Assembly (NCBI RefSeq): GCF_051622035.1
Contig: NC_135362.1
Span: forward strand, 9,551,501-9,615,500
DNA from: Arctopsyche grandis
Taxonomy: Eukaryota; Arthropoda; Insecta; Trichoptera; Hydropsychidae
DNA: 64,000 nt
Direction of reading: 5' to 3'
In this document: positions 19,401 through 26,789 of the stretch, piece after piece
Position numbering within the stretch: the first letter of the stretch is position 1
Layout: each line of letters begins with the position of its first letter
Made by a program: the position numbers and the translations under genes
Notes under the pieces: model-generated
What the model was told of the DNA's origin: nothing
Seen by the model: only the letters and a program-made list of their open reading frames with translations
Databases searched by the model: none

Positions 19401-19625
19401 TTGTTTGTATTTTAAATGTCGCTTTGACAGCTGGGTGGGTTGGGCAAGTCGGGGCGAAACGACGGGCGGAGGGGCAGGGGAGGGGAGGGGATGGTAGTAG
19501 TAATAGTAGGGCGCGTCTTTACCGACTGCGTAGGCGCGGCGCTGCGGGGGTGGGTCGGGGGAGTCGTCGGCGGGGGGGGAGGGGGAGTCCCCCTGCAACG
19601 GTGGCCGCCACACCGTTACGGTCAT
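1443..19625 (-). CDS. mbc: DOCK1/2/5-type Rac guanine exchange factor (myoblast city)
   Basis: Atypical Rac GEF that works with ELMO and Crk in the cytoplasm and at the membrane (cell migration, myoblast fusion, engulfment). My 36-exon model closes in frame at 2,020 aa, close to the family's usual length. Coding exons (high-low): 19625-19523, 16660-16471, 15942-15840, 14912-14767, 14682-14556, 14481-14254, 14177-14083, 14010-13813, 13738-13612, 13529-13320, 13243-13145, 13078-12902, 12829-12646, 12572-12424, 11664-11489, 11409-11228, 11147-11015, 10939-10765, 6824-6669, 6580-6366, 6285-6074, 5990-5748, 4890-4691, 4618-4367, 4285-4085, 4010-3875, 3801-3661, 3584-3324, 3241-3092, 3011-2899, 2801-2668, 2593-2513, 2438-2306, 2230-2066, 1989-1884, 1804-1443. 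An N-terminal SH3 reads AIHNYSAS...GIFPKTYV. The C2/DHR1 contains RNDLYLCLLNG and KHRSSNEAKDKSEKPFALSF. The DHR2 contains LPGILRWFPV and VMGGVANYEKAFF, which favour DOCK1/2/5 over DOCK3/4. The tail has Crk-SH3-type sites PPPPPLPQK and APTPPPKKR. Confidence 0.93.
4938..5709. mobile_element. Non-autonomous TIR element with TTA target duplication
   Basis: A 772-bp element in a DOCK intron. Its ends are inverted repeats of roughly 100 bp beginning CACTGTTCGACA and sharing the blocks AGAGACGAGATATGAC and ATCTGGTAATAAAAAATG. Both sides are flanked by TTA (4935-4937 and 5710-5712). A 3-bp TWA duplication is the habit of PIF/Harbinger elements, so this looks like a Harbinger-type MITE. No transposase is visible. 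Confidence 0.7.
7008..7103. repeat. (TA)n microsatellite
   Basis: Nearly pure TA dinucleotides for about 95 bp in a DOCK intron, next to the candidate cassette exon. Its length is likely to vary between individuals. Confidence 0.95.
7183..7296 (-). other. Candidate in-phase cassette exon of the DOCK gene
   Basis: A 114-nt open segment lies in the 3.9-kb intron between the exons at 10939-10765 and 6824-6669. It has a strong donor (GTAAGT) and an AG acceptor (AAATAG) with a poor pyrimidine tract. It is phase 0 at both ends, so it would add 38 residues including RSKNRSVDKIARILGASRQK. DOCK1 and DOCK3 run straight through this junction (NDE-LELCIKIL here; QEDLEACCQLL in DOCK1), so it is either an optional insert or a chance ORF. 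An unrelated (TA)n tract starts about 80 bp beyond it. Confidence 0.3.
8035..9008. mobile_element. Foldback-like element with repeated ends
   Basis: The two ends are inverted copies beginning (G)TGGCTATTTGCAGGTACT. Each end carries two to three tandem copies of a 33-bp unit containing TAGTACCTGCAAATAGCC. Inside them is a shared block with GCGCATGCGC. Repeated subterminal units are typical of foldback and some hAT-type elements. There is no coding capacity. A separate palindromic MITE (8071-8464) has landed in the left end. I could not define a clean target duplication. Confidence 0.6.
8071..8464. mobile_element. Palindromic MITE with 8-bp target duplication (family H, copy 1)
   Basis: A 394-bp near-perfect palindrome flanked by CTGCAAAT at 8063-8070 and 8465-8472. 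The arms include GACAGAAAACGCAAATATCG and the phrase CGAAAATCGAAAGATC. The centre contains two facing copies of AGGAACAGGCTTTTCCTCCC. The 8-bp duplication suggests mobilisation by a hAT transposase. A second copy is at 56796-57180. Overlapping ORFs are artefacts of the palindrome. Confidence 0.8.
9009..10764. other. Intronic stretch without recognisable genes
   Basis: This is intron sequence of the DOCK gene. A 107-codon plus-strand ORF at 9700-10023 and its antisense partner lie here, but both are compositionally AT-driven and resemble no family I know. I see no TIRs or RT motifs. Confidence 0.5.
11736..12420. repeat. Dispersed repeat (copy 1), split by a solo LTR
   Basis: About 200 bp around CAGTTGTAATATATT and TTTCAACAATGTGCG match 17816-18037 closely. 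Here the repeat is split by the LTR at 11936-12311. After the LTR it continues with TATTACGA and GTATTATGATAA, which in the other copy follow directly or after a MITE. The two copies therefore act as empty-site controls for each other's insertions. Confidence 0.65.
11936..12311 (+). mobile_element. Solo LTR of an LTR retrotransposon (fossil)
   Basis: It starts TGTAACGTAGG and ends in TGCAACA. It is flanked by ATAC on both sides (11932-11935 and 12312-12315), a 4-bp duplication typical of Gypsy-like integration. Related LTRs in this window are at 15157, 36130 and 42226 (the last inverted). A shared 3' phrase is GCGACTTTGGCCTTT. There is no internal region, so it arose by LTR-LTR recombination. 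Confidence 0.75.
15157..15657 (+). mobile_element. Solo LTR plus an inverted piece of its own 5' end (fossil)
   Basis: The LTR-like unit 15157-15554 starts TGTTACGTACGCCGCC, contains GCGACTTTGGCCTTT and ends CTACACAACA, like its relatives at 11936 and 36130. It is followed at once (15556-15657) by an inverted copy of its first 100 bp, ending TACGTAACA. The result mimics a TIR element. It looks like an old, rearranged LTR in a DOCK intron. Confidence 0.6.
15943..16470. other. DOCK intron 2, no features seen
   Basis: AT-rich intron sequence between coding exons 2 and 3. I see no repeats with defined ends and no ORF of interest. Confidence 0.6.
16661..17815. other. Left part of DOCK intron 1, nothing recognised
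   Basis: About 1.15 kb of AT-rich sequence with short ORFs only. No domain, TIR or RNA gene is visible. The intron continues through the elements listed at 17.8-19.5 kb. Confidence 0.5.
17816..18037. repeat. Dispersed repeat (copy 2) in DOCK intron 1
   Basis: Matches 11736-11935 over about 200 bp. Its continuation resumes after the inserted MITE at 18038-18393. Shorter phrases of the family (TTGTAATATATT next to a CCAACTGG-like core) recur at 18560-18790 in both orientations. Confidence 0.6.
18038..18393. mobile_element. hAT-type MITE with CAGGGCCG ends
   Basis: A 356-bp element with terminal inverted repeats CAGGGCCG(C/A)CGAGAGG. It is flanked by AATATAGG (18030-18037) and AATAAAGG (18394-18401), an 8-bp target duplication with one mismatch. 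There is no transposase. Comparison with the copy at 11.7-12.4 kb supports insertion here. Confidence 0.75.
18560..19330. repeat. Intron 1 repeats and a short perfect hairpin
   Basis: 18560-18790 holds several facing copies of TTGTAATATATT-like and CCAACTGG-like phrases. At about 19168-19214 a 16-bp arm CAAATGTACAATCGCG faces its complement across a 12-bp loop. I found no larger element ends, and the rest is plain AT-rich intron. Confidence 0.5.
19523..19625 (-). other. mbc: First coding exon of the DOCK gene (within the CDS entry)
   Basis: The exon starts at ATG 19625 (context GAGGCCATG) and reads MTVTVWRPPLQGDSPSPP, a proline-rich stretch, then QRRAYAV. It ends at a GTAAAG donor with phase 1. 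Its last base joins exon 2 (16660) to give the A of AYAV-AIHNYSAS. This lines up with the vertebrate DOCK1 start, MTRWVPTKREEKYGVAIYNY. The phase match and the W-P/YGVAI correspondence fix the exon despite a 2.9-kb intron. The proline-rich 19-residue insert relative to DOCK1 is unusual. Antisense ORFs over this GC-rich segment are shadows. Confidence 0.85.
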
Positions 19626-19842
19626 GGCCTCGGCCTCGGATTCGATCCTGTTCCTATTACTAGTGAGCGGCAGCCTACGGTCGGCGACTAGCAGTCGACT
19701 CGAACGCCGGCCGACACCCACTGCTATGCGATCAGCAATCAGCGAACGTCACTCGGCCCTCCCCCCCAACAACACCCGCACCCCACACTGCACGCTCTGC
19801 ACACACCACTCATTCGAACGTCGAGTGAACGAGTGATGTTTG
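19626..19842 (-). promoter_or_regulatory. GC/CpG-rich 5' region upstream of DOCK exon 1
   Basis: The window averages strongly AT-rich, but about 19.43-19.83 kb is GC- and CpG-rich with polypurine/polypyrimidine runs. It surrounds the first coding exon, so it is the likely 5' UTR and proximal promoter. I see no convincing TATA box. A palindromic MITE (19843-20135) sits directly upstream, and the whole block recurs inverted at 23.94-24.78 kb. Confidence 0.55.
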
Positions 19843-24715: not shown

Positions 24716-24783
24716 ATGATCGTAACGGTGTGGCGGCCACCGTTGCAGGGGGACTCCCCCTCCCCCCCCGCCGACGAATCCAT
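24716..24783 (+). pseudogene. Truncated duplicate of DOCK exon 1
   Basis: ATG 24716 is followed by MIVTVWRPPLQGDSPSPP. This matches the true exon on the minus strand at 19625 apart from codon 2 (T to I) and the end, where homology stops and the donor is missing. It lies on the plus strand and points away from the gene, into a LINE remnant. It cannot give DOCK protein as it stands. Whether its copied promoter still fires is unknown. Confidence 0.85.
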
Positions 24784-26789
24784 TGAATCGAAAAAAACAA
24801 ATCGGCGCCTATGGATCGAAAAAAAAAATAGAATCACGTGTTCGATGACGTCACCGATCTACGGACGACGACGAACGAAGGATACATACAAAGTCTCTTT
24901 CCAAATTATATATTGTGAAAATTCAATTGCTCAGAATCCGTAAAATTTTTGGAGCTTCATCAACAGCAAACGAATTATAGATTCAAAACTTACGAAAATG
25001 CACGATATGGATGAGGACTTTATTGGTCATGACAGCATCGCAAATGCCTTTGCTAACTATTTTCATTCGGTTTTTGATTCGACTACTGTTATGACTTCCC
25101 CTAGTTTAGATTCCTCCATGTTTCCATTATTGTCTGTTGACAAGTTCCATTTATCTGATTTACGCTACGGTTTTGGTAAAATTAAAAATATTAAATCTTT
25201 TGGACCAGATTTCATTCCAGATTTCATTTTAAAGGGTAGTGAGCCTGGACTCTCGTCTCCATTGATTTTTATTTTTAATCTAATGCTGAAGACTTCAGTT
25301 TTTCCTGTATCATGGAAGTGTTCGAAAGTAACTCCATTAGAAACTATCGCCCGGTTGCTATAATATCCTCTTCTGCAAAACTTTTTGAAATTGTACTTCA
25401 TAGGTATATTTTCAATCCTTGCCAGGGTATGATTATTGATCAGCAACATGGATTTCGTCCACAACGTTCAACGACCACAAATTTGTTGTCATTTTCTGGT
25501 TTTGTAACAGGTTCCTTGGATGCTAATATTCAAACAGATACTGCTTACACGGATTTCGAAAAGGCTTTCGACAAAGTAAATCACTCCATCCTTATCAATA
25601 AACTAATTGGTTATGGTTTCTCATATGGTCTCTCTGAGTTATTCACAAATTATCTCAAGGATCGTCGTCAGTTTGTAAAATATGGAATTTTTCCTTCTGT
25701 TGAATACCCAACCTGCTCTGGTGTTCCACAGGGTTCTAATCTCGGCCCCTTACTATTCATTTTATTTGTTAATGATATTAGGGAAATATTCCACAACTGC
25801 AACTTCTTATTATATGCAGATGATCTAAAACTTTTTAGGTGCGTTGAATCTTCTTGCGATGCTCTACTGCTACAGAGCGATTAGATTCACTCGTTATTTG
25901 GTCACACTCAAATTGTCTTCCGATAAGCGTTGACAAGTGTCACATAATCTCTTTTTCCAGATCTCGATCATCAATTGAATTTGGTTACAATATTGATGAC
26001 TCTATTCTGGCCCGTCACACACATATCAAGGATTTGGGAATTCCTTTTTCAAATATCTGGAATTTTAATTCTCATATCCAAGATTTGTGCAATAGGGCTA
26101 CAAAAACTTTAGGCTTCGTCATCAGAAACTCACGCGCCTTTAATAGCACCAGAGTGACGCGTTTACTGTATACTACATTGGTGCGCAGTTTGCTTGAATC
26201 TGGTTCGGCCATATGGAGTCCTAATCATTTTCTTTGCACCCTCTCGCTAATGTTAGAGAGGGTGCAAAGAAAATTTCTTCGCTATCTCTACATGAGAGAG
26301 TTTGGGCGCTATCCCTACTTATTTCCCAGTAAGTTTGTTATGGGCTCCTTGGGCTTTGACTCCTTAGCTTCACGTAGAAACAATCATCTTGGTAAGCTTT
26401 TTCTAAAAATTCTAAGGGGTGAATGTCATCTTCCTGAAGTTCTGTGTAATCTTAAACTTAGAGTACCTGAGAAACTGAGAGAATCTCGCTCCAGAACTCT
26501 ATTCCTTCCTATTCGGGCCAGAACTAATGTGCTTGATGACTCACCCCTTTCAAGAGCCATTCGACTATTTAACCTGCTTTCTGGGAGCCTTGATGTTTTT
26601 ACTTCATCATACAGTTCTGTCAGGCAGCATATTTTAAATGACTTCTAGCTACATACATATTTACACATGTTGTTTTCATTTTGTAATTTTATTATTTAGC
26701 ATAATGTGTATGTATGTTGGTTTTATCTTTATTTATATATGTATGCTATTTTTTATTTATCATATATATAAAGACGGTAATCTGTAATC

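What the first reader, a model, noticed from the sequence alone, without database searches (positions are those of the whole stretch)
19523..24785. Inverted duplication of the DOCK (mbc) promoter and first coding exon
The first coding exon at 19625-19523 was placed by exact phase joining (AYAV + AIHNYSAS). Its GC-rich 5' region and first 22 codons recur in opposite orientation at 23939-24785, with a 3.55-kb spacer. The copied exon stops before its splice donor. A second, outward-facing copy of a developmental gene's promoter could drive antisense-orientation or novel transcripts into the LINE at 24.9 kb, and the arms could pair or recombine.
Basis: seen in the sequence. Interest (0 to 1): 0.75.

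Follow-up and report, generated by a model that had tools for sequence, protein, structure and literature searches.

The report
Gene promoter copied into neighbouring Helitron
In this animal genome, probably an insect's, the start of a DOCK-type gene has a second, backward-facing copy just upstream, and that copy turns out to be filler DNA inside a Helitron jumping element, a known kind of gene-fragment capture with an unusually close donor.

Summary
The inverted copy is real. Window 19564-20379 (first 62 coding bases of a DOCK gene, its GC-rich 5' region, a MITE and a second repeat) recurs inverted at 23940-24777 (808 compared sites, 94.9% identical, 5 indel events). It is not limited to the MITE. 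The account of what it is needs replacing. The block sits inside a non-autonomous Helitron whose 3' half (23558-23941) and 5' half (from 24776) flank it in correct order and orientation; five of six re-read family copies show the joint without the block, the sixth lacks the motif. The LINE at 24.9 kb is a recent insertion into the Helitron's 5' end, and most of the 3.56-kb spacer is a later hAT-like element with a nested LTR element. Without the hAT the donor lies 91 bp from the Helitron and the arms 473 bp apart. Best reading: break repair inside a resident Helitron copied the neighbouring promoter as filler DNA, with 2-bp overlaps at both joints. A third, partial copy lies on another chromosome, not in this Helitron family, and ends in a small snap-back palindrome. 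Promoter activity could not be tested. Known kind, instructive geometry.

The parts
19523..19625 (-). First coding exon of the DOCK (mbc-like) gene, MTVTVWRPPLQG...AYAV, with GT donor
   Evidence: in-phase join to 16660; joined exons match DOCK5/1/2 N-terminal SH3 region, best E 3.8e-10
19564..20379 (-). Donor segment, 816 bases: first 62 coding bases, 5' region, MITE, second repeat and about 26 further bases
19844..20135 (.). Near-palindromic MITE with 9-bp direct repeat GATGTTTGG (19835-19843 / 20136-20144); present at the same joint in both arms
   Evidence: 103 matches, 40 scored of 2275 candidates; direct repeat checked
20140..20353 (.). Interspersed repeat B inside the arm
   Evidence: 38 further matches besides the two arms, 40 scored of 420 candidates
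20409..23487 (.). hAT-like element (class assigned from recalled features): inverted ends CAGTGGCGGCTCGT, 8-bp duplication CAACGAAT (20401-20408 / 23488-23495); makes up most of the spacer
21397..23125 (+). LTR-type element nested in the hAT; LTR copies 21397-21481 plus 22123-22205 (interrupted) and 22965-23125; 5-bp duplication AAGAG (21392-21396 / 23126-23130)
   Evidence: a solo LTR on C1 is 99.4% identical over 158 bp
23558..23941 (-). Helitron F, 3' half: CTAG terminus, A-rich stretch, three 72-bp repeats
23940..24777 (+). Inverted copy of the mbc 5' region, 838 bases, inside Helitron F; overlaps AT (23940-23941) and GA (24776-24777) with Helitron sequence
24716..24901 (+). Chimeric open frame from the copied ATG: 20 mbc codons then Helitron sequence, 61 residues
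24776..24914 (-). Helitron F, 5' half, interrupted by the LINE
   Evidence: 24782-24911 matches 39 other listed places, 40 scored of 1848 candidates; uninterrupted joint in five copies
24915..27400 (+). 5'-truncated LINE, recent; duplication ATATT (24910-24914 / 27401-27405); RVT_1 domain
   Evidence: 25 of 39 other listed copies print 100% identity over the tested stretch; Pfam
27406..27408 (-). Last bases (TCT on the Helitron strand) of Helitron F's 5' end, displaced by the LINE; directly abuts another Helitron
27409..28756 (.). Second F-family unit with CTAG ends facing outward at both sides and 15-bp and 72-bp arrays

Best explanation
The 23940-24777 arm is a piece of the mbc 5' end captured as filler DNA inside a non-autonomous Helitron (family F, Helitron strand = minus) sitting just upstream of the gene. 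Shown: the copied block replaces the middle of an F element; both Helitron halves flank it in order; without the intervening hAT the donor lies 91 bp from the Helitron's 3' end; each joint has a 2-bp overlap. Inferred: a break in the Helitron's tandem-repeat core was repaired in place by polymerase template switching onto the adjacent promoter in inverted orientation, losing part of the core. Later a hAT (with a nested LTR element) widened the spacer and a young LINE split the Helitron's 5' end. Any activity of the copy as a promoter is unproven.
For: Family F copies read TCTAAT...CTAG with A before in 13 of 20 fetched 5' ends and T after in 19 of 20 3' ends. In five of six re-read intact copies ...GGTGAATCCATTGAA... 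joins the Helitron core to the 5' half, exactly where the window switches from mbc to Helitron sequence; the sixth (L075) lacks the motif. The 3' half begins at or within a few bases of 23557 in most of the 40 scored members. The unique mbc part has only three places in the genome: donor, this arm and a partial copy on C1, so transposition has not multiplied the capture. The genome carries 16 Helitron_like_N matches over the cut-off. Filler DNA with 2-13 bp end junctions is reported for insect Hel1 Helitrons (PMC6544945, passages and section 8).
Against: No 3' hairpin in the last 40 nt of F (3 ends in the window; 12 of 20 collected ends folded). In the six copies the 5' flank is A in three and T in three, so it is A in 16 of 26. 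2-bp overlaps are weak evidence of mechanism. In-place repair versus capture elsewhere and landing beside the donor is argued from distance and from the lack of sister copies alone. None of 11 other intact F places showed host flank copied inside it, so local capture is not seen as a family habit; the flanks held were only 153 to 2342 bases a side.
Confidence: 0.82

Rival explanations
1. The Helitron captured the mbc fragment elsewhere or earlier, then transposed and happened to insert beside its donor.
For: Helitrons are known to carry captured fragments (PMC3789558, passages).
Against: No other F copy with the mbc piece was found, and a random landing within 4 kb of the donor in 475.7 Mb has odds of about 2 in 100,000 (own arithmetic from the genome size).
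Confidence: 0.12
2. A plain inverted duplication of the mbc 5' end formed at the locus by replication template switching, and Helitron sequence on both sides is coincidental, as the first reader in effect proposed.
For: Without the hAT the arms are 473 bp apart, which resembles short-range inverted template switching.
Against: The two Helitron halves fit one element: correct order and orientation, outer termini present.
Confidence: 0.03
3. Assembly artefact (foldback read or misplaced haplotig).
For: Inverted repeats can be an assembly error; no reads were available.
Against: No N; arms differ at 41 of 808 sites with 5 indel events, unlike a foldback of one molecule; the hAT, LTR and LINE elements in and beside the spacer each have matching target duplications.
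Confidence: 0.03
4. The copy is an active divergent promoter that drives the Helitron and LINE (this can hold together with the best explanation).
For: The 5' region and ATG are present and face the LINE.
Against: Its 5' region differs more between arms (K2P 0.098) than the neighbouring repeats do (0.038-0.042), though the change may lie on either branch; the frame ends at 24901. No expression data.
Confidence: 0.1

Closest known systems
Silkworm Helitrons with captured gene fragments (PMC3789558; passages seen)
   Same: TC...CTRR elements in an insect genome carrying host gene fragments; that paper counts 3724 fragments from 268 genes
   Different: Here the fragment is promoter plus start codon, found in one F copy, and its donor is the adjacent gene
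Insect Hel1 Helitrons with stepwise filler DNA (PMC6544945; passages and section 8 seen)
   Same: Internal acquisition with short end junctions, read there as break repair
   Different: Added regions there are 35, 66 and 108 bp, with sources named on three separate scaffolds and one not found; here 816 bp from next door, inverted
Lepidopteran Hel-2 Helitrons (PMC4344730; passages seen)
   Same: 5'-TC, 3'-CTAG, A/T flanks, internal tandem repeat arrays
   Different: Hel-2 has a predicted 3' hairpin; none was found in family F
Inverted or templated insertions at DNA breaks (PMC11724301, PMC8421209; search listing with start of abstract only)
   Same: Copying of sequence into a break, in PMC11724301 as inverted duplications
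   Different: PMC11724301 speaks of mostly 5-34 bp in yeast; this one is hundreds of bases, seen in one assembly

Membership tests
Helitron (non-autonomous) | 5' TC and 3' CTRR termini | tested here: met
   TCTAAT in 20 of 20 fetched 5' ends (20 of the 39 other places); CTAG in the family's 3' ends with exceptions such as L062 and L065
Helitron (non-autonomous) | Insertion between A and T without target duplication | tested here: met
   A before the 5' end in 13 of 20 (T 3, G 2, C 2; both G are another Helitron's CTAG) and 3 of 6 (T in 3); T after CTAG in 19 of 20. A tendency, not a rule. No consistent duplication seen by eye. The window copy's own 5' flank is hidden by the abutting element
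[quoted passage not shown]
   last 40 nt fold at -0.5 kcal/mol, no better than shuffles; 12 of 20 collected ends folded alike. PMC3789558 says 'often', not always
Helitron (non-autonomous) | Autonomous Rep/Hel partner in the genome | tested here: met
   16 Helitron_like_N matches over cut-off, some in open frames; that such an element moves F was not tested
Helitron gene capture | Host gene fragment inside an element whose siblings lack it | tested here: met
Helitron gene capture | Captured fragment mobilised with the element | tested here: not met
   the unique mbc part has 3 places and no second F copy holds it; the C1 copy has no F end nearer than about 4.7 kb in the 9.9 kb fetched
Foldback (FB) transposon | Long inverted terminal repeats with tandem units | tested here: not met
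   intact F copies have unlike ends; only the 27409-28756 unit shows two inverted ends

The most novel reading that the evidence does not exclude
Helitron 'gene capture' can happen in a resident element without transposition, using the nearest promoter as repair template, and the mbc 5' region with its palindromic MITE is a recurrent donor: it independently seeded this inverted arm and a snap-back-ended fragment on another chromosome.
Probability: 0.45. Interest if true: 0.5.

Novelty: new member of a known kind. Interest (0 to 1): 0.36.

Why it matters
How Helitrons acquire host DNA is still argued (end bypass against filler DNA; PMC6544945, passages). A case where donor and recipient are neighbours, orientation is inverted and both joints are readable speaks for repair in place. 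It also shows how a developmental gene can gain an outward-facing copy of its own 5' region, and warns that a close inverted repeat need not be a segmental duplication.

Tried and rejected
Foldback transposon or composite element: suggested by inverted 72-bp arrays at 23.7 and 27.8-28.5 kb, dropped when intact family members showed one CTAG end and one TC end. Chimeric retrotransposition with the LINE: the LINE match starts at 24912 in all 39 other listed copies (40 scored of 2038 candidates), and 24782-24911 is Helitron, so the LINE did not bring the mbc piece. C1 copy inside another F Helitron: in the 9.9 kb fetched the nearest F ends lie about 4.7 kb away. Its right flank is a different repeat; its left flank carries a repeat in its outer 172 of 313 bases. 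Common origin of this arm and the C1 copy: at the two MITE sites where the donor alone differs, the family majority (15 of 17) has the arm/C1 base at one and is split at the other, so no shared derived state was found; at three sites (20033, 20028, 20018) donor and C1 share a minority state and the arm has the majority one, which would make C1 the later copy, but the alignment there is uncertain near the extra 32-bp unit. Homologous proteins for exon 1: 46 candidates, none at E 10 or better. Species: not identified; 'insect' rests on recalled resemblance, not on a call. Own-flank capture as a family habit: 26 locus rows were read, 9 without a held 5' end were dropped, and the 17 left are 11 different places; 4 of the 11 places had hits to their flank, all within the outermost 84 bases of F and read as neighbouring Helitron ends. 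Paper searches listed, by title and start of abstract, no paper on a Helitron holding an inverted copy of the adjacent gene's promoter; that library holds open-licence papers only, so absence from print is not claimed.
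Full report
What was claimed and what is there. The sequence bears this out. Self-comparison pairs 19560-20379 with 24781-23940 in one inverted match, and blockwise comparison gives the same. Over the arm 808 sites compare, 41 differ, with 5 indel events and K2P 0.053. The exon is sound: donor and acceptor join in phase, and the joined 98 residues match the N-terminal region of DOCK5, DOCK1 and DOCK2.

What surrounds the second arm. The window is G000:C8:9551501-9615500 of an unnamed 475.7-Mb genome. Searching the stretch left of the arm (23488-23960) hit a large family that mostly begins at 23557/23558 and carries 72-bp tandem units (40 scored of 2572 candidates). 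Reading family members to their far end showed, after the repeats...GGGGGTGAATCCATTGAATCGAAAAAAACAAATCGGCGCC...CCAAATTATATATTAGA or close variants. In the window that same sequence follows the mbc copy directly (24776 on). The 130 bases 24782-24911 alone occur in 39 other listed places (40 scored of 1848 candidates). So the mbc copy lies between the two halves of one mobile element.

What the element is. On its own strand (minus) it reads TCTAAT...CAGCTAG. Of 20 fetched 5' ends, 13 are preceded by A, 3 by T, 2 by C and 2 by the CTAG of another Helitron; of 20 3' ends, 19 are followed by T. In six further copies the 5' flank is A in three and T in three, so A is a tendency, 16 of 26. No consistent target duplication was seen. 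These are Helitron features. Internal tandem arrays are also described for lepidopteran Hel-2 (PMC4344730, passages). A 3' hairpin, often present in Helitrons, was looked for and not found. The genome encodes Helitron_like_N domains (16 matches).

How the copy was made. At the left joint the bases AT (23940-23941) and at the right joint GA (24776-24777) belong to both Helitron and mbc sequence. Part of the Helitron core is missing. This fits filler DNA at a break inside the element, the model favoured for insect Hel1 elements, where 2-13 bp end junctions were reported (PMC6544945, section 8). Two-base overlaps are weak support on their own. Location is the stronger clue. The spacer is mostly a hAT-like element (20409-23487) with an 8-bp duplication, itself holding an LTR element with a 5-bp duplication. 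Taking out the hAT and one duplication leaves 91 bp between donor and Helitron, and 473 bp between the arms (arithmetic). No other F copy was found with the mbc piece. Repair in place is therefore more likely than capture elsewhere and a chance landing. A survey of 11 other intact F places found none with host flank copied inside; four had flank hits, all at Helitron ends, and the flanks held were short. So this is one event, not a demonstrated family habit.

Later events. A young LINE (25 of 39 other listed copies print 100% identity over the tested stretch) split the Helitron's 5' end, with ATATT on both sides. A second F unit abuts it at 27408/27409; the same CTAG|TCTAAT abutment occurs in 2 of the 20 other 5' ends.

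The third copy. C1:1406808-1407275 holds part of the MITE, the 5' region and the first coding bases. It ends with GGTGTGGCGGCCACCGTTACGGTCATG, in which the last bases are the reverse complement of the exon start: a small snap-back palindrome, possible because AACGGTG...CACCGTT can pair (fold, where 21 of 200 shuffles fold as well). I read it as a second, independent templated insertion; a link to polymerase theta is recalled, with search listings only. Over 192 shared MITE sites the donor differs from the C1 copy at 2 and from the inverted arm at 9, and arm and C1 differ at 7; no state shared by arm and C1 against the donor is clearly derived, and three uncertain sites group donor with C1.

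Function. The copied ATG opens a 61-residue frame, 20 mbc codons then Helitron sequence, ending at 24901. The 5' region differs more between the arms (K2P 0.098) than the repeats beside it (0.038-0.042). Whether the copy starts transcripts is unknown; I lean against.

Verdict. Observation confirmed with small corrections; interpretation replaced by Helitron filler-DNA capture from the adjacent gene. A new member of a known kind, of moderate interest for the closeness and orientation of its donor.

Noticed in passing
L003:1501-1968 (C1:1406808-1407275): Third partial copy of the mbc 5' end on another chromosome, ending in a snap-back palindrome at the exon start.
   Followed up: partly
window 27409-28756: Helitron unit with CTAG ends facing outward on both sides and 15-bp and 72-bp arrays, perhaps two elements fused head to head.
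   Followed up: partly
window 27408/27409; L093; L106: Helitrons abutting without spacer (CTAG|TCTAAT), three cases.
   Followed up: no
window 50736-51134 and 53813-54217: Two nearly identical glutathione S-transferase N-terminal frames, probably a tandem gene pair (Pfam run on the first only).
   Followed up: no
window 8071-8462 and 56797-57180: A 390-bp element that is 95% self-complementary, with a second copy 48 kb away.
   Followed up: no
window 32433-33885: Satellite-like array, 296-bp unit, 4.8 copies.
   Followed up: no
window 19626-19838 against its copy in 23940-24715: The GC-rich 5' region differs between arms about 2.4 times more than the adjacent repeats, with clustered changes, against the usual expectation for a promoter.
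   Followed up: no
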